Positions 44,927 to 54,421 of a stretch of DNA of 64,000 nucleotides are shown here, piece by piece. Numbering within the stretch: the stretch's first letter is position 1; every line of letters begins with the position of its first letter. A program made the translations under genes and the position numbers. The notes below the pieces were generated by a model that saw nothing but the letters and a program-made list of their open reading frames with translations, searched no databases and was not told the DNA's origin. This stretch comes from Bolinopsis microptera (Eukaryota; Ctenophora; Tentaculata; Lobata; Bolinopsidae). The stretch spans positions 2,680,536 through 2,744,535 of the forward strand of contig NC_087083.1 in assembly GCF_026151205.1 (NCBI RefSeq). Direction: 5' to 3'.

Positions 44927-44934
44927 AAAATTTG
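44927..44934 (+). repeat. Target-site duplication, left (AAAATTTG)
   Basis: Directly abuts the left terminus of the foldback element and is identical to 53067-53074 in the same orientation. Confidence 0.85.
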
Positions 44935-45480
44935 GGCAAGTTTCCATAAACGATATTTTATGATCGGCGACGATAATCGCTTATTGAGCGCTTTTTCGGC
45001 GCTTTTTTTTTTAAAAACCGTTTACAATCGCTTTTTTTACGATTATAAACGGTTCAAAAAAAATCGCTTATAATCGACTATAATTGGTGTCATAATTCAA
45101 AAAAGCGCTTTTTTGAATTTAAAAGCGCTTATAAGCGCTTTTAAGCGCTTACTAGCGTCGCTGAGCGACTTGAAAGCGGTTTTCCAGTAGGATTGGCGCC
45201 AAAAACGGGTGGATAAGCGGTTGGCCGGATAAGCGATTCGTGGGCGCTTAATTGAACCAATTATAAGCGATTATAAGCGCTTATAATTGGGGTGCAATTT
45301 AGCTGTTTGTAAAGCGCAAATAAAGCGCTTATAAGCGCTTTTAAAATTGAGTCAGGAAAACGCTATATTACATCTTATAACCGCTTATAATCGATTATAA
45401 GCGTTTTTTTAGAAATCGCTTATTACGGCTAATTCATCGCTATTTCACCGCTTTTACCGCTTTTCCTATCATCCATGGCC
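44935..45480 (+). repeat. Left terminal inverted repeat of foldback element
   Basis: Pairs with 52530-53066 in reverse complement. Shared landmarks include CCAGTAGGATTGGCGCCAAA, ACGGGTGGATAAGCGGTTGG and the GCGCTTATAAGCGC palindromes. It has few gaps, so the two arms are either young or kept alike by conversion. Confidence 0.88.
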
Positions 45481-46855
45481 AGGTGAGCAGGAATTAAAAA
45501 GCGCTTATAAGCGCTTTTTCGATGCTGCCCCTAGCCTGGTCGGAACGGGGTAGTGCCCGGAATTTAAAAGCGCTTATAAGCGATTTCTCAATTCCCCTTA
45601 ACCTGGTCAGAACTTGCATGTGCTTTTCTGAGCAACCTGGGGTGCACCGGCAGAGTCAGGATTTAAAAGCGCTTATAGGCGCTTATGATCGCTTTTCTAC
45701 CACTTTTCCTATCACCCATGGCATGGGTTGGCAAGAATTATAAAGCGCTTATAAGCGTTTTTCAATGCTGCCCCTTAGCTGGTCGGAACGGGGGAGTGCC
45801 CGGAATTTAAAAGCGCTTATAAGCGCTTTTTCAATGCCGCCCCTAACCTGGTCGGAACGGGGTGCCCCGAATTTAAAAGCGCTTATAAGCGATTTCTCAA
45901 TTCCCCTTAACCTGGTCGGAACTGGAGAGTGCCAACTTGCATGTGCTTTTCTGAGCAACCTGGGGTGCACCGGCAGAGTCAGGATTTAAAAGCGCTTATG
46001 ATCGCTTTTCTACCGCTTTTCCTATCACCCATGGCCTGGTTGGCAAGAATTAGAAAGCGCTTATAAGCGCTTTTTCAATGCTGCCACTAACCTGGTCGGA
46101 ACGGGGGAGTGCCCGGAATTAAAAAGCGCTCATTAGCGCTTTTTTAATGCTGCGCTTATAAGCGATTTCTCAATTCCCCTTAACCTGGTCAGAACTGGAA
46201 ATCAGTGTGCCCGCTTATAGTTATAAGTGCTTTTCTGTGCAACCTGGGGTCACCGGCAGAATCAGGATTTAAAAGCGCTTATGATCGCTTTTCTACCGCT
46301 TTTCCTATCACCCATGGCCTGGTTGGCAAGAATTAGAAAGCGCTTATAAGCGCTTTTTCAATGCTGCCACTAACCTGGTCGGAACGGGGGAGTGCCCGGA
46401 ATTAAAAAGCGCTCATAAGCGCTTTTTAAATGCTGCCCCAGGCCCCTAACCTGGTCGGAACTGGAAATCAGAGTGCCCGCTTATAAGTGCTTTTCTGAGC
46501 AACCTGGGGTACACGGCAGAGTCAGGATTTAAAAGCGCTTATGATCGCTTTTCTACCGCTTTTCCTATCACTCATGGCCTGGTTGGCAAGAATTAGAAAG
46601 CGCTTATAAGCGCTTTTTCAATGCTGCCACTAACCTGGTCGAAACGGGGGAGTGCCCGGAATTAAAAAGCGCTCATTAGCGCTTTTTTAATGCTGCGCTT
46701 ATAAGTGATTTCTCAATTCCCCTTAACCTGGTCAGAACTGGAAATCAGTGTGCCCGCTTATAGTTATAAGTGCTTTTCTGTGCAACCTGGGGTCACCGGC
46801 AGAATCAGGATTTAAAAGCGCTTATAGGCGCTTATGATCGCTTTTCTACCGCTTC
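45481..46855 (+). repeat. Left-arm array of 245-313-bp palindrome-rich repeats
   Basis: The phrase CCTATCACCCATGGCCTGG or a close variant recurs at about 45466, 45708, 46021, 46305 and 46565. Each unit carries several AGCGCTTATAAGCGCT-type 16-bp palindromes plus the boxes AACCTGGTCGGAACGGGGG and CACCGGCAGAGTCAGGATTT. Unit length varies as palindrome modules are gained or lost. Open frames across it are repeat translations. Confidence 0.9.
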
Positions 46856-46857
46856 TA

Positions 46858-47217
46858 CTAAATCGCTCGCCCAAATTTTAAGGAAATTCTTGTGAAAAGG
46901 CCCTTTGGGGCATGAAAGTGATATATATCGGTGTATTTTTGGACGCTGATTCCGAATCAACCCCCATGACGTAGGGTTAAAATGCTTCCCTGGAGAGTTA
47001 TGGGCAAAAAACCGTTTTGGTCACGTGACAGGCTAGTAAAATACGAATTCGATTGTTTAGGGCCCGGGTTAGGGTTAGGCTTGTGGTAAGGGTTATGGTT
47101 AACTTCGGGGTTATGGTTAGGGTTAGGGTTGGGATTAGGATTTATGTAAAACCGTTTTGTACGGCTGCAAAACCATAAAAACCAAAGTCACGTGAAATTT
47201 TTGGTCGAGCGAATTAG
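46858..47217 (+). mobile_element. 360-bp MITE-like element with telomere-like tract, copy 1
   Basis: The ends are inverted: CTAAATCGCTCGCCCAAA at the left and the complement of CTAATTCGCTCGACCAAA at the right, each flanked by TA, as expected of a TA-target family such as Tc1/mariner-type MITEs. Inside (about 47058-47135) is a run of imperfect GGGTTA repeats. It has no coding capacity. A diverged copy lies inverted at 48942-49296. Confidence 0.7.
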
Positions 47218-48941
47218 TAAAAGCTGAGTTGGACTCCAATATATGGAACAAATATTTTACGAGTGTCACCCGTCAATTCTCGCAATCACATTCAACATTG
47301 CGCTTCGCTATAGTTTGGTAAAAATTCACCACTAGACTGGGCCTCGCCAAGCTGTGAATTGAAAGATTGACATCGCATTGTGAGTCAATATTTTATTTTG
47401 TCTCATGTTAGTTCATGCTGTAAAATGGGCATATCAGCTTGTTTACCGATTACCGCGCAATTGTTTAATTTACTTATGACTATGTCACGACGCGACCTGA
47501 ATGATACAAATAGACCCAATACCCATGGTTAACAGGTGATACTCTTAATTGACGGATGTTACTCGTCTAAAGTAGCGCGCGCCGCTTTCTTCTCGAAATG
47601 CCACGATGGCACGTGCTATGTCGGGCCAGACCAGTAACATGTAACATGCAATGGTCAAGTGATACTCTTAAAATATTTATCACAAATATAAGCAATTAGA
47701 CCGGCGACAATTAAGTGTCTTGCATGCTTATAAACACGTTTTGCATGGTATAAATACGTCTTGTATGGTTATAAACACACAAACTTATGGTTATAACTAT
47801 ATATAATACAGCCATGAGGGGTGATTCGGAATTGAAGCGTCCTTGTAGGTTAATAACCTACCAGGGCGCGCGCCGAGTTGGACTCGTCGACGTTGACCAT
47901 TGTTAATGATCTGGCCCGGCGCGCGCTACTTCATAGCACTTGCCATCGACTTCGAGAAGAAAGCGGCGCTACTTCGAAGAAATTTAGACGAGTAACATCC
48001 GTCAATCGTCGACGGTCCTAATATTTAAAGCAAATATATTACGAGTATCACCCGTTAAAAGCGTCCAAAATCTATACTAATTTTATCATAATTTAAAGCA
48101 TTTTTAATTATTATTGTATTATTATTACTCTGTATTTAGTATGTATGCACGACTGCCTACGTGCAAATTAGGTGAAAAGCAAAAGGTTGGGAACCAATAT
48201 ATGGTTGCCAAAATCGATGGAGGGTTGGCGGCTAAATCAAAGCCCAACGGCTCTGGATTAGGGGTGGACGATAAAATAAACTTGCTCAGATTTTAAAATT
48301 TTTTGTAACACTGTTTTCTAGAGACTGTGAGAATTTTCACAATACCAAATTTGTCATACCTTTTTGGAAAGATCGGTGAGTTTCGCCTCACTAGCTGGGT
48401 GCCTTTTGTTCTATCCAGAGCCCTTGCGCTTGCAGTAGCGCGCGCCCACTCACGTCTTGATGTACTTGTGAAACAAGCGCGCCCGAAGTGGCGCGAAAGC
48501 ACATGGTTAGGTGAAGGGTGCCATATTTGATGGTGCGCGGCTTTTGGAGCAAAGTAGATGTAAAAGTCGCGTAATTTGACCAAATTCGTTGATTTTTGTC
48601 GTATTATTTCGGACACTTTCCTCGTAAGTCTATGAGTACAGAGTGAGAGCTCACCAATTTTTGTTGCAATCGGAGGTCGGGAAGGATACTCAATATCTAT
48701 TTGTTTGAAGAAAATTGTGCTGGCCGAAATTAGTGCTAAAAAACTATCCTACTATACAGTCGGCACGCGCGGCTCACTGTTGATGGCGCACTACCTATCT
48801 GGATATAATAGAGCAACGGCAGCACGAAGGCACATGGTTAAGTTAGGTGCAAAATAATCAAACATGCAGAAACTCTTAGCTTTATTGCATTGTATATCAT
48901 GTGTACGCTTATTTTTGTATAAAAACCGCGACCGGCTCTTG
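47218..48941. other. Centre of the foldback element, no transposase seen
   Basis: Contains a nested inverted repeat (about 47548-47612 against 47942-48007, sharing GACGGATGTTACTCGTCTAA and CTTTCTTCTCGAA). It also has ~45-bp direct repeats around ATATTACGAGTATCACCCGT (near 47236-47275 and 48018-48060) and several GCGCGCGCC tracts. Short frames on both strands around 48290-48616 overlap each other and show no recognisable motif. Confidence 0.6.
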
Positions 48942-49296
48942 CTAATTCGCTCGCCCAAAAATTTCACGTGACCTTGGTTTTTATGGTTTTGCAGCCGTAC
49001 AAAACAATTTTACATAAACCCTAATATAATCCCAACCATAACCCCGAAGCTATCCATAACCTGCGTACCTTAATCCAAACCCTAACATGAGCCCTAAACA
49101 ATCGAAATCATGTTTTACTAGCCTGTCACGTGACTAAAATGGTTTTTGCCCATGTAACTCTCCAGGGAAATATTTTTACCCTACGTCATGGCGGGTGATT
49201 CGGGATCAGCGTCCAAAAAATACACCGATTTAGATCAATGTCATACCCAAAGGCCTTTTCACAAGAATTTTCTTAAAATTTGGGCGAGCGATTTCG
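48942..49296 (-). mobile_element. 355-bp MITE-like element, copy 2 (inverted)
   Basis: Reverse-complement relative of 46858-47217 along its whole length, clearly more diverged than the outer arms are from each other. Its GGGTTA-like tract (here CCCTAA-like, about 49018-49097) is more degenerate. The right end is flanked by TA, the left by TG. Confidence 0.7.
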
Positions 49297-49879
49297 TAGG
49301 AGCGATTCAAACGCGCAATCTGGCGCGGTTTATTTGTTGCAGTTTTACTATCTAATAATCAAATTTTACAAGCTATCTCAGCACGCCTGCACGCGCACGG
49401 CTTTACTAGCGTATATGTACATTACTTTTTTCCTATTGGTACTCAGCGTGCACTTGTTTTTATGTCCACGATTGATTATGAACAAGTACGTGAATGCTGG
49501 TCACGCACACACTAACTTTCAATGAGCACCGCACTTTTTTCAGACGTCGTGATTCGCTCAGCCCGACTAGAGATTCCTTGGAATGACATAAACAGGCCTG
49601 TCATACTCGTTGACAGACTGAGCGTGGCCCAGCGCAATAATTTAATGTGAAGTGTGTATGACTGATGACGCAGCGCGCATCGACCGCCACCAGGACAACC
49701 ACCACCATTAACAACATATAAATAAACGCTTTACAATTTCTGACAATTATTGTCAGAGAACTTTGCCGCGCCGTGCACTTAGCCTTCTTGCTTGGCTTCT
49801 AGATCGCCAGTCAAACAACTATGTTTAAATCCATGTTGATAAATGATAGATAAATCGGTAAAAACCAGCAATAAAAAGT
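49297..49879. other. Right-arm-specific spacer
   Basis: This stretch has no partner in the left arm. It holds a short palindrome (TCTGACAATTATTGTCAGA at about 49739) and no convincing gene; the 81-codon frame starting in the MITE end is judged spurious. Confidence 0.5.
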
Positions 49880-52529
49880 GATTGTAATCGCTTATAACTT
49901 ATAACCGCTTTTCAAATCCTTAGGGGCAGCATTAAAAAAGTGCTTATAAGCGCTTTCTAATTCCTGCCAATCAGCCCATGGGTGATGGGAAAAGCGGTAG
50001 ATAAGCGATCATAAGCGCCTATAAGCGCTTTTAAATCCTGACTCTGCCGGTGCACCCCAGTTTGCTCAGAAAAGCACATACGAGTGGGCACTCTCCAGTT
50101 CCGACCAGGTTGAAGGGAATTGAGAAATCGCTTATAACTATAAGCGCTTTTAAATTCCGGGCACTCCCCCGTTCGGACCAGGTTAGGGGCAGCATTGAAA
50201 AAGTGCTTATAAGCGCCTTTTAATTCCGGGCACTCCCCCGTTGCGACCAGGTTAGTGGCAGCATTGAAAAAGCGCTTATAAGCGCTTTCTAATTCCTGCC
50301 AACCAGGCCATGGGCGATAGGAAAAGCGGCAGAAAAGCGATCATAAGCGCCTTTAAGCGCTTTTAAATCCTGACTCTGCCGGTGCACCCCAGGTTGCACA
50401 GAAAAGAACTTATAAGCGGGCACTCTGATTTCCAGTTCCGACCAGGTTAAGGGGAATTCAGAAATCACTTAAAAGCGCATATTAATTCCAGGCACTCCCC
50501 CGTTCCGACCAGGTTAGGGGTAGCATTGAAAAAGCGCTTAAAATTCTTGCCAACCAGGCCATGGGTAATGGGAAAAGCGGTAGAAAAGCGATCATAAGCG
50601 CCTATAAGCGCTTTTAAATCCTGACTCTGCCGGTGCACCCGAGGTTGCACAGAAAAGCACTTATAAGCGGGCACTCTGATTTCTAGTTCCGACCAGGTTA
50701 AGGGGAATTGAGAAATCGCTTATAAGCGCTTATTAATTCCAGGCACTCCCCCGTTCCGACCAGGTTAAGGGCAGCATTGAAAAAACGCTTATAAGCGCTT
50801 TATAATTCTTGCCAACCAGGCCATGGGTGATGGGAAAAGCGGTAGAAAAGCAATCATAAGCGCCTATAAGCGCTTTTAAATCCTGACTCTGCCAGTGCAC
50901 CCCAGGTTGCTCAGAAAAGCACATGCAAGTGGGCACTCTCCAGTTCCGACCAGGTTGAAGAGAATTGAGAAATCGTTATAAGCGCCTTTTAATTCCGGGC
51001 ACTCCCCCGTTGCGACCAGGTTAGTGGCAGCATTGAAAAAGCGCTTATAGGGCGATAGGAAAAGCGGTAGAAAAGCGATCATAAGCGCCTATAAGCGCTT
51101 TTAAATCCTGACTCTGCCGGTGCACCCCAGGTTGCTCAGAAAAGCACATGAAAGTTCCAACCAGGTTAAGGGGAATTGAGAAATCGCTTATAAGCGCTTT
51201 TAAATTCCGGGCACTACCCCGTTCCGACCAGGCTAGGGGCAACATCGAAAAAGCGCTTATAAGCGCTTTTTAATTCCTGCTCACCTGGCCATGGATGATA
51301 GGAAAAGCGGTAGAAAAGCGATCATAAGCGCTTTTTAATCCTGACTCTGCCGGTGCACCCCAGGTTGCACAGAAAAGAACTTATAAGCGGGCACTCTGAT
51401 TTCCAGTTCCGACCAGGTTAAGGGGAATTCAGAAATCGCTTATAAGCTCATATTAATTCCAGGCATTCCCCCGTTCCGACCAGGTTAGGGGTAGCATTGA
51501 AAAAGCGCTTAAAATTCTTGCCAACCAGGCCATGGGTAATGGGAAAAGCGCTAGAAAAGCGATCATAAGCGCCTATAAGCGCTTTTAAATCCTGACTCTG
51601 CCGGTGCACCCGAGGTTGCACAGAAAAGCACTTATAAGCGGGCACTCTGATTTCTAGTTCCGACCAGGTTAAGGGGAATTGAGAAATCGCTTATAAGCGC
51701 TTTTTAATTCCGGGCACACCCCCGTTCCGAACAGGTTAGGGGCAGCATTGAAAAAACGCTTATAAGCGCTTTATAATTCTTGCCAACCAGGCCATGGGTG
51801 ATGGGAAAAGCGGTAGAAAAGCAATCATAAGCGCCTATAAGCGCTTTTAAATCCTGACTCTGCCGGTGCACTCCAGTTCCGACCAGGTTGAAGAGAATTG
51901 AGAAATCGTTTATAAGCGCTTTTTAATTCCGGGCACACCCCCGTTCCGAACAGGTTAGGGGCAGCATTGAAAAAACGCTTATAAGCGCTTTATAATTCTT
52001 GCCAACCAGGCCATGGGTGATAGGAAAAGCGGTAGAAAAGCGATCATAAGCGCTTTTTAATCCTGACTCTGCCGGTGCACCCCAGGTTGCTCAAAAAAGC
52101 ACTTATAAGCGGGCACTCTGATTTCCAGTTCCGACCAGGTTAGGGGCAGCATTTAAAAAGCGCTTTTGAGCGCTTTTTTATTCCGGGCACTCCCCCGTTC
52201 CGACCAGGTAAGGGGCAGCATTGAAAAAACGCTAATAAGCGCTTTATAATTCTTGCCAACCCGTGCCATGGGTGATAAGAAAAGTGGTAGAAAAGCGATC
52301 ATAAGCGCCTATAAGCGCTTTTAAATCCTGACTCTGCCGGTGCACCCCAGGTTGCTCAGAAAAGCACATGAAAGTTCCAACCAGGGGAATTGAGGGGAAT
52401 TGAGGGGAATTGAGAAATCGCTTATAAGCGCTTTTAAATTCCAGGCACTACCCCGTTCCGACCAGGCTAGGGGCAACATCGAAAAAGCGCTTATAAGCGC
52501 TTTTTAATTCCTGCTCACCTGGCCATGGA
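49880..52529 (-). repeat. Right-arm array of palindrome-rich repeats (inverted)
   Basis: Same repeat family as 45481-46855 in opposite orientation, with about twice as many units. GGCCATGGGTGATGGGAAAAG variants recur roughly every 220-340 bases. A short internal triplication of GGGGAATTGA lies near 52385-52415. The arms are unequal in length, so the array has expanded or contracted independently on each side. Confidence 0.9.
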
Positions 52530-53066
52530 TGATAGGAAAAGCGGTAAAAGCGGTGAAATAGCGATGAATTAGCCGTAATAAGCGATTTCTACAAAAACGC
52601 TTATAATCGATTATAAGCGGTTATAAGATGTAATATAGCGTTTTCCTGACTCAATTTTAAAAGCGCTTATAAGCGCTTTATTTGCGCTTTACAAACAGCT
52701 AAATTGCACCCCAATTATAAGCGCTTATAATCGCTTATAAATGGTTCAAAAAAGCGCCCACGAATCGCTTATCCGGCCAACCGCTTATCCACCCGTTTTT
52801 GGCGCCAATCCTACTGGAAAACCGCTTTCAAATCGCTCAGCGACGCTAGTAAGCGCTTAAAAGCGCTTATAAGCGCTTTTAAATTCAAAAAAGCGCTTTT
52901 TTGAATTATGACACCAATTATAGTCGATTATAAGCGATTTTTTTTTAACCGTTTATAATCGTAAAAAAAGCGATTGTAAACGGTTTTTTTTTTTAAAAGC
53001 GCCGAAAAAGCGCCCAATAAGCGATTATCGGCGCCGATCATAAAATATCGTTTATGGAAACTTGCC
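52530..53066 (-). repeat. Right terminal inverted repeat of foldback element
   Basis: Reverse complement of the left terminus (44935-45480). Confidence 0.88.
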
Positions 53067-53074
53067 AAAATTTG
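53067..53074 (+). repeat. Target-site duplication, right (AAAATTTG)
   Basis: Directly abuts the right terminus of the foldback element and matches 44927-44934. Confidence 0.85.
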
Positions 53075-53354
53075 TATTTAAAAAAATCAGGACACCATTT
53101 TTGAAACACCCTGTACATACTTACATAGTCTAGATTGTAGTCTTTGATAATTGTTGATCTGCTGAGTAAGATTCAGATATTTACCAATAAGTGACACGTG
53201 ACGTGTCACAAGTGCTTCATCTCTCCGTCAGGGCATCTGACACCACGTGCACAACATTTACTCGAATAGTTGAACAACATAGGGAAGTAGACCTGACTCT
53301 ATATTTCTTGATGAGATCATCCCACACTATGATATTGAGTAGGTACCATTAGCT

Positions 53355-53475
53355 GTCACGTGATAAGACTGCAGCTGTCACGTGATAAGACTGCAGAGGC
53401 ACGTGATAAGACTGCAGAGGCACGTGATAAGACTGCAGAGGCACGTGACTGCAGGAGTCACGTGGCTGCAGGAGT
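53355..53475. repeat. 21-bp minisatellite with CACGTG boxes
   Basis: About six repeats of CACGTGATAAGACTGCAG plus AGG, the last ones degenerate. Each has a CACGTG E-box-type palindrome and a CTGCAG site. The local frame (DKTAEAR repeats) is repeat translation. Confidence 0.85.
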
Positions 53476-54284
53476 CACAACATTTACCGTCACCAGACTG
53501 GGAATACTTCATCATAAACATGTAAAAATCTTTCTACAGAAACCAATCAGTATTTACACATCATTCTTATGGCGTAACTGAATAACGATATTCTGATATT
53601 CGATAAGTAATTACTTTTGACTTTTATCCGTGCATTGACCTTATTCTTGGTGCAGCATTAGAATTACATGGTACATTTTGGTGTTCTTAAAAGACTTTTA
53701 TCTAGATACATTATTTTATTTCGATTTTTCTAACAGGGCCCATTTGCAACCGGCTATAGTTAAAAGCGTTATCCTTGTTTGTAAATAAACTACACTATTT
53801 GACTATCTTTGACAAAAATTCGTAAGTCGATGAATTAAAGAACAATTGCTTAAAAGTTAATATTAAAAACAAATAATGCTTTTAGTTTTTGCGTTTTTGG
53901 ACACGAAGGAAAACACACGACGTAAGGCTAGAAATCTTCGTAAAACTACATCATTAGAGCCTCAAATTATTTGTTATATAGTAGTGTTGAAAATATTAAA
54001 AACATTATAACGAACCGCAGACTAGATTTTCATGAGAGTTTGACCCGCATCTTGCTAAACAAAATACTTAAAATAAGTTGTGAGAAATTAGGGTATTAAC
54101 GAGATTTGGTAACAGTGACACTTTGACACTATTTCTCAAACACCAAGTGACTGTGAATGGCTATCAATGCTTTATTACTTTATTTATTTCATCTGAAAAT
54201 GTTTTTTTTCTGATGATTTTAATTAATTAATTAACTAATTATTCCCAGTAACTGTAAAACTAGGAAAACTGCCTCTAGTTGAAC

Positions 54285-54421
54285 TGTTATAGTGTTATTC
54301 TGCTGTTATAGTGTTATTCTGCTGTTATAGTGTTATTCTGCTGTTATAGTGTTATTCTGCTGTTTTGGTGTTATTCTGCTGTTATAGTGTTATTCTGCTG
54401 TTTTAGTGTTATTCTGCTGTT
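54285..54421. repeat. 19-bp minisatellite
   Basis: About seven repeats of TTATAGTGTTATTCTGCTG with TTTTGGTG and TTTTAGTG variants. Confidence 0.88.

What the first reader, a model, noticed from the sequence alone, without database searches (positions are those of the whole stretch)
44935..53066. Foldback transposon whose arms are palindromic satellite arrays, with intact 8-bp target duplication
Perfect AAAATTTG on both sides proves insertion as a unit, yet the body is almost entirely inverted arrays built on AGCGCTTATAAGCGCT. Each repeat can form a cruciform by itself, and each whole arm can pair with the other. This resembles classical foldback elements in plan, but the repeat sequence and organisation match none that I know.
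Basis: partly seen in the sequence, partly recalled or inferred. Interest (0 to 1): 0.8.

Follow-up and report, generated by a model that had tools for sequence, protein, structure and literature searches.

The report
Foldback transposon, probably Merlin-driven
An 8-kb jumping DNA element, whose two long mirror-image arms are built from palindromic repeats, is one of many recent copies in this animal genome and is most likely moved by a Merlin-type transposase, an enzyme family not known to me to drive foldback elements.

Summary
Window 44935-53066 (8132 bp) is one unit with perfect 8-bp duplications (AAAATTTG); a paralogous empty site with a single AAAATTTG exists on the same contig. The palindrome AGCGCTTATAAGCGCT occurs 68 times (up to 3 mismatches), always inside the element (chance 0.2). 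The arms fill 63% of the element, not almost all.
The family is large: 237 ends, of which the 198 exact ones form 85 pairs of 89 bp to 18.1 kb. 32 of 35 copies examined have perfect 8-bp duplications. No transposase was found in any.
Best explanation: a non-autonomous foldback family moved by a Merlin transposase. GG ends and 8-bp duplications are Merlin-like. The same genome holds transposase-bearing Merlins with repeat-array arms; one lineage has 0.7-0.95-kb foldback arms, GGSAASTT ends and transposase-free foldback copies. No Merlin match was found inside a copy with this family's exact ends (0 of 58, 0 of 126; 39 inexact ends were not listed), so membership is inferred. New variant of a known kind: the literature searches listed showed no report of foldback Merlins.

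The parts
44927..44934 (.). left 8-bp target-site duplication AAAATTTG
   Evidence: the single copy of it is present in the paralogous empty site L109
44935..46865 (+). left foldback arm, 1.9 kb: terminal GGCAAGTTTCCATAAACG..., then arrays of AGCGCTTATAAGCGCT palindromes with about 69-bp and 260-283-bp higher-order repeats
46866..49879 (.). middle domain, 3.0 kb, no transposase found; holds two inverted copies of a ~380-bp dispersed repeat (46850-47220 at its left edge, 48942-49314 in its right part) also seen near unrelated loci
   Evidence: longest open frame 151 aa, no Pfam match
49880..53066 (-). right foldback arm, 3.2 kb, inverted relative to the left arm
53067..53074 (.). right 8-bp target-site duplication AAAATTTG

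Best explanation
A non-autonomous foldback transposon that moves by cut-and-paste using a Merlin (IS1595/IS1016-like, DDE) transposase supplied in trans. Shown: unit insertion, constant ends, 8-bp duplications, an empty site, many similar copies, and no transposase found in the copies read. Also shown: other Merlin lineages in the same genome, some with intact transposase frames, carry arms of ~11-bp or palindromic repeats, and one of them (lineage C) has 0.7-0.95-kb foldback arms and transposase-free foldback derivatives with the same ends. Inferred: the transposase recognises the terminal GGCAAGTT and probably repeated sites in the arms (GGCAAG recurs in the arms, always in the orientation of the nearest end). 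Also inferred: because the arms are mirror images, repair or replication copies one arm onto the other, which keeps the two arms of a copy alike, lets arrays grow and shrink, and lets the middle be replaced or lost.
For: GG ends and 8-bp duplications (32 of 35 perfect) match the published definition of Merlin, terminal 5'-GG and 8-9-bp duplications (PMC8101967 passages). The genome has 58 matches to PF12762 and 126 to one lineage's 318-aa transposase, five of them 100% identical over the whole length, the query's own locus among these; D, D and E are invariant in the 7 aligned. 10 of 21 Merlin loci scanned gave inverted ends plus an 8-bp duplication, 9 perfect and 1 at 7/8 (GG...CC ends were imposed by the scan). 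Lineage ends: C GGGAAGTT/GGCAACTT, D GGCAACTT, G GGGAAATT; this family GGCAAGTT. Arrays of 11-bp period with 3 or more units lie at 15 of 31 Merlin loci or pieces scanned, with inverted arms of about 0.3-0.95 kb in lineages B, C, D, F, G. Lineage C: transposase-bearing copy of 3919 bp with ~950-bp arms and a perfect duplication; 5 of 6 further copies fetched have perfect duplications, and four of these have arms 94-100% alike; 9 of 58 PF12762 matches lie inside and within 5 kb of the 100 listed C ends, against 0.1 by random placement. Within-copy arm identity 98.9% against 97.9% shuffled, p=0.0002, 11 copies. Empty site.
Against: No Merlin transposase was found in a copy with this family's ends: 0 of 58 PF12762 matches lie in the 85 pairs. 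Of the 126 protein matches, two lay inward of an unpaired exact end, but the copy there is a 222-bp element with its own duplication, so they lie outside it. 39 of the 237 ends are inexact and were not listed, so they were not tested by position. Similarity of the ends to other lineages is short (about 8 bases; its chance level was not computed). The arm repeat has a period near 10 rather than 11, and the arms of this family do not match the arms of the Merlin loci fetched. The lineage-C frame is 240 aa, lacking most of the N-terminal part of its 318-aa relative, so that copy may be defective.
Confidence: 0.75

Rival explanations
1. It is a foldback element moved by another superfamily with about 8-bp duplications, such as Mutator-like (MULE) or hAT, the usual home of foldback elements being Mutator.
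For: Most described foldbacks are assigned to Mutator (PMC4079207 passages). Both families are present here: PF05699 150 matches from 150 of 366 candidates scored, PF10551 88 matches from 131 of 131 candidates scored.
Against: 0 of 150 hAT and 0 of 88 MULE matches lie inside the 85 pairs; one hAT fragment with stop codons inward of an unpaired end lies over 3 kb beyond a 176-bp piece of the family. The duplication is 8 bp and the ends are GG, unlike the CA ends of hAT (recalled). P, Zisupton, Sola and other superfamilies were not searched.
Confidence: 0.15
2. It is a locally grown satellite or inverted duplication, and the matching 8-bp flanks are chance or part of the repeat.
For: The arms are satellite-like arrays with higher-order repeats.
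Against: 85 pairs of ends; 32 of 35 copies with perfect duplications that differ from copy to copy; an uninterrupted empty site; copies of 89-359 bp with the same ends, most with perfect duplications.
Confidence: 0.02
3. The transposase source is extinct in this lineage: a Merlin-like enzyme once moved the family and the copies are now immobile.
For: No autonomous copy found.
Against: 198 ends identical over 23 bases and a pair of 4.7-kb copies 99% identical (L009 and L015) suggest recent movement; related lineages keep long open frames (318, 320, 337 aa).
Confidence: 0.3

Closest known systems
Merlin superfamily (PMC8101967, passages read)
   Same: 5'-GG ends, 8-bp duplications; Merlin transposases with DDE_Tnp_IS1595 are present in the same genome; tandem repeats inside Merlins have been reported
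   Different: this family has no transposase that I could find; arms of 1.9 and 3.2 kb exceed the 24-462-bp inverted repeats quoted for Merlin; palindromic arrays as foldback arms are not described in the passages read
Galileo (P superfamily foldback of Drosophila; abstract of PMC3688188 read)
   Same: long inverted repeats with tandem repeats that carry multiple transposase-binding sites
   Different: another superfamily; its duplication is 7 bp (recalled); arms not built on a palindrome as far as I know
Tetris and other Mutator-type foldbacks (PMC4079207 passages; Tm1 PMC3169594 search listing only)
   Same: flanking domain, tandem-repeat domain and variable middle domain; autonomous partner not found for Tetris
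   Different: 8-10-bp duplications in Tetris against 8 bp here; TIR-220 repeats against a 16-bp palindrome; no GG ends that I know of
Sea urchin TU elements (recalled)
   Same: foldback arms of short tandem repeats, 8-bp duplications
   Different: repeat sequence; not compared here, no sequence held

Membership tests
Foldback elements | long inverted arms made of internal tandem repeats | tested here: met
Foldback elements | target-site duplication at independent copies | tested here: met
   32 of 35 copies perfect
Foldback elements | middle domain variable in size and content | tested here: met
   pair lengths 89 bp to 18.1 kb; core sharing differs between copies
Merlin superfamily | terminal 5'-GG | tested here: met
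Merlin superfamily | 8- or 9-bp target-site duplication | tested here: met
   8 bp, 32 of 35 perfect
Merlin superfamily | DDE_Tnp_IS1595 transposase in the same element or in an autonomous copy with the same ends | tested here: not met
   0 of 58 and 0 of 126 Merlin matches lie in copies with the exact ends; 39 inexact ends not tested by position. Filed as Merlin-like and probably Merlin-driven, not as a proved member
Merlin superfamily | inverted repeats of 24-462 bp | tested here: not met
   arms of 1.9 and 3.2 kb; but transposase-bearing lineage C here also exceeds it, ~950 bp
Mutator-like (MULE) foldbacks | MULE transposase in the element or an autonomous copy | tested here: not met
   0 of 88 PF10551 matches inside 85 pairs
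hAT | hAT transposase in the element or an autonomous copy | tested here: not met
   0 of 150 scored PF05699 matches inside 85 pairs; 216 further candidates were not scored
Any named Repbase/Dfam family | library match | not testable with these tools
   no repeat library is held

The most novel reading that the evidence does not exclude
This genome hosts a radiation of foldback Merlins in which each lineage has replaced its subterminal DNA with its own short palindromic or ~11-bp repeat, arranged as mirror-image arms. The arms behave as a self-copying cassette: they are homogenised within each copy and can enclose foreign middles (a reverse-transcriptase piece in L108, a differently-ended 5.2-kb core in L100), so that arm sequence and transposase specificity change together lineage by lineage.
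Probability: 0.4. Interest if true: 0.72.

Novelty: new variant of a known kind. Interest (0 to 1): 0.55.

Why it matters
Foldback elements are mostly assigned to Mutator (PMC4079207 passages), with the P-type Galileo as an exception (PMC3688188 abstract). Foldback architecture in Merlin would be an independent origin in another DDE superfamily, with transposase-bearing members at hand. Having several lineages with different arm repeats but related transposases in one genome makes an old question testable: whether foldback arrays are multiplied transposase-binding sites, and how the two arms stay alike. The copies also spread palindromic satellite seeds and long inverted repeats through a chromosome set.

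Tried and rejected
Autonomous copy inside the family: looked for by coordinates of 58 PF12762 matches, by reading the surroundings of 42 of those 58 (8, 14, the 1 kb downstream of 20; checked), by the inner 14.3 kb of the 18.1-kb copy (longest frame 132 aa; matches to the family lie in small parts only) and by a transposase protein search. One apparent success at C1:4836456-4836928 was rejected after reading the locus: the family copy there is 222 bp with its own duplication CTCAAATC, and the old Merlin lies outside it beside arrays of another lineage. An open end with a hAT fragment inward of it (C11:11581237) carries only 176 bp of the family.

Coding in the middle domain: the longest frame in the copies read whole is 161 aa (L100); it is 151 aa in the window. 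Only four such frames were put to Pfam (L015, L016 and the window, L100), none with a match over a cut-off. A sub-cutoff bacterial-toxin name for the L016 frame (E 0.026) is taken as chance.

Results against my reading: lineage-C copy L105 and lineage-G copies L103 and L104 had no matching 8-bp duplication at the chosen ends; L102 has no long foldback arms; 11 of 21 Merlin loci gave no end pair in the scan, in part because some fetched pieces stop short of an end; 16 of 31 Merlin loci or pieces show no 11-bp array of 3 or more units (20 of the 31 are only 1-kb pieces, and lineage A has a 15-bp unit instead). Lineage labels A-H are mine. Copies fetched were chosen by size class from the listed ends, not at random. 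The shuffles are Markov resamples, and repeats inside one array are not independent. The 9 Merlin matches rest partly on a variant C end (TTTAGCTCC at its inner side; 4 of the 9).
Full report
OBSERVATION. The element runs from 44935 to 53066 (8132 bp) and starts GGCAAGTTTCCATAAACG, with the reverse complement at the other end; AAAATTTG flanks both sides. Its arms are inverted copies of each other: 678 bp at 97% complementarity without gaps, 942 alignment columns at 95% with gaps. AGCGCTTATAAGCGCT with up to 3 mismatches occurs 68 times in the window, always inside the element, against 0.20 expected. Autocorrelation peaks at 10 and 11 bases, with longer repeats near 69 and 250-283 bases. The arms (44935-46865, 49880-53066) make up 63%; the rest is a middle domain without a recognisable gene. 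A single 20-nt unit can fold into a hairpin of -7 kcal/mol, but 17 of 200 shuffles do as well, so cruciforms are a possibility, not a finding.

INSERTION AS A UNIT. The two flanks joined with one AAAATTTG (300 bases) were searched in the same genome: 45 matches, 40 of 54 candidates scored. Two are the halves at the element itself. One place, C12:3184552-3184814, matches bases 1-263 through the junction at 97%, and bases 261-300 follow nearby. Reading it shows one AAAATTTG and no element; small insertions and deletions elsewhere make it a diverged segmental copy rather than an assembly echo (inference). A further 38 matches run from base 133 to 191 or beyond, also through the junction, at 76-87% identity: the element landed at the edge of a dispersed repeat. 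The other three matches do not span the junction.

THE FAMILY. The window is C12:2680536-2744535 of a 264.65-Mb genome. The first 23 bases with up to 2 mismatches occur 237 times, the reversed-pattern control 0 times (100 places listed). Exact matches number 62 + 36 + 100 = 198. Pairing each forward end with the next end, if that is a reverse end within 25 kb, gives 85 pairs and 28 unpaired ends; 17 pairs are 89-1140 bp, 67 are 2.8-9.0 kb and one is 18.1 kb; together 427 kb. The 39 inexact ends were not listed. Target duplications were read for 35 copies: this one and 20 others (17 of those 20 perfect, two 7/8, one 5/8), 12 of 12, L100 and a 222-bp copy. In all, 32 of 35 are perfect at 8 bp, and the sequences differ between copies. 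The 30 perfect ones show a weak palindromic A/T-rich target preference. Two 4.7-kb copies, L009 and L015, are 99% identical over their length.

WHO MOVES IT. The ends begin GG and the duplication is 8 bp, the published marks of Merlin (PMC8101967, passages; the same passages report Merlin in three ctenophores and tandem repeats inside Merlins). The genome has 58 matches to the Merlin domain PF12762, all 63 candidates scored, and 126 matches to one 318-aa transposase, 125 of 149 candidates scored, five of them 100% identical over their whole length, the query's own locus among these. In seven aligned transposases one E and two D in the positions I take for the catalytic triad are invariant (assignment from knowledge of the family). 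I fetched surroundings of 42 of the 58 PF12762 matches. A scan that requires GG...CC inverted ends and an 8-bp duplication found them at 10 of 21 loci, 9 perfect and one 7/8. Arrays with an 11-bp period and at least 3 units lie at 15 of 31 Merlin loci or downstream pieces, with different units: GCACACCTCGG, ACATTAAGACA, AACCGGCTACT, ACCGGTTAAGA, AGTACGGCGGC, GCCTATCGGGC, TGCCCCAAGTG, CTTATAGCCGG. Lineage A has a 15-bp palindromic unit, TGGTCCATGGACCAC. Inverted arms of about 0.3-0.95 kb occur in lineages B, C, D, F and G.

LINEAGE C IS THE KEY COMPARISON. At C13 a 3919-bp element with duplication CTTCCACT has ~950-bp foldback arms (92% alike) of GGCTACTAACC-type repeats around a Merlin open frame of 240 aa; the frame lacks most of the N-terminal part of its 318-aa relative, so this copy may itself be defective. 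The C end pattern occurs 147 times with up to 2 mismatches (100 listed). Of six further copies fetched, five have perfect duplications. Two of these carry other DNA between the same arms: L108 a frame with a reverse-transcriptase match, L101 an unassigned 308-aa frame. L106 and L107 have only arms and spacer; L102 lacks long arms. 9 of the 58 PF12762 matches lie inside and within 5 kb of the 100 listed C ends; random placement of those ends gives 0.1 on average, 3 at most. So Merlin-borne foldbacks with transposase-free foldback derivatives exist here, which is the arrangement proposed for the window's family. End sequences: C GGGAAGTT or GGCAACTT, D GGCAACTT, G GGGAAATT, this family GGCAAGTT.

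WHAT IS NOT SHOWN. No Merlin match was found in a copy with the window family's exact ends: 0 of 58 and 0 of 126. hAT and MULE matches do not lie in the 85 pairs either (0 of 150 scored and 0 of 88). The link to Merlin therefore rests on ends, duplication length, architecture and the lineage-C precedent. I keep 'works like a Merlin element' (0.75) apart from 'is a Merlin', where the transposase test is not met.

HOW THE ARMS MAY WORK. In Galileo, a P-type foldback, the tandem repeats of the long arms hold several transposase-binding sites (PMC3688188, abstract). Here GGCAAG, the first six bases of the element, recurs 4 times inside the left arm and 6 times inside the right arm, always pointing like the nearest end and never the other way (resampled means, end included, 0.7 and 1.2; the repeats are not independent). 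The two outer arms of a copy are more alike (98.9%) than arms paired across copies (97.9%), p = 0.0002 for 11 copies and p = 0.0007 for 7 after dropping four near-identical ones. This suggests copying between arms within a copy, as expected if a mirror-image molecule is repaired or replicated from its own other arm; that step is inference. L100 fits this: family arms of 755 bp on both sides enclose a 5204-bp core with lineage-G ends, the arm symmetry runs 32 bases into the core, and the core has no 8-bp duplication of its own.

WHERE IT IS. 264.65 Mb with contigs C1-C13 of 15-26 Mb (locus tables) fits the ctenophore Bolinopsis microptera, listed as 265 Mb and 13 chromosomes (PMC11797021, passages), although that table gives 346 scaffolds and this genome has 232 contigs. 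This is an inference and nothing rests on it.

PRINT. Seven searches of the open-licence library for foldback, Merlin, palindromic, sea urchin or ctenophore combinations were run; the rows seen were 20 of 107, 20 of 102, 5 of 5, 1 of 1, 12 of 21,329, 15 of 29 and 15 of 121. None of the titles, abstract starts or passages I saw describes foldback Merlins or this family. Unlisted rows, subscription journals and repeat libraries were not seen.

Noticed in passing
window 1-43330: Three tandem units of about 13.4 kb, 84-85% identical to each other, make up the first two thirds of the window; content not examined.
   Followed up: no
L100 (C12:12201278-12207991): Family arms of 755 bp on both sides enclose a 5204-bp core whose ends are those of another Merlin lineage (GGGAAATTGGTAGATCACC), outer duplication GTTTTAGT, no duplication for the core: a composite foldback.
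   Followed up: partly
window 46850-47220 and 48942-49314; also L042, L045, L050: A ~380-bp dispersed repeat with TCGCTCGCCCAAATTTT-like ends and degenerate GGGTTA repeats lies inverted at the left edge and in the right part of the middle domain, and parts of it near unrelated loci.
   Followed up: partly
L101 and L108: Lineage-C foldback arms enclose foreign DNA: a reverse-transcriptase frame in L108, an unassigned 308-aa frame in L101, each with a perfect 8-bp duplication outside.
   Followed up: partly
C12:1517646-1535775 (L071, L072 and end pieces): An 18.1-kb copy with a perfect duplication CAAATTTT; most of the 14.3 kb read of its interior does not match the other copies, and its longest open frame is 132 aa.
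   Followed up: partly
L110 (C1:4831300-4841200): A 222-bp copy of the family sits beside a decayed Merlin of another lineage with ACTTGGGGCAC arrays.
   Followed up: yes
window 53075-53130: The joined insertion site matches 38 other places at 76-87% from 10 bases left of the duplication onward, so the element sits at the edge of a dispersed repeat that was not identified.
   Followed up: no
window 53357-53478 and 54284-54421: Short tandem arrays right of the element (CACGTGATAAGACTGCAGAGG; CTGTTATAGTGTTATTCTG).
   Followed up: no
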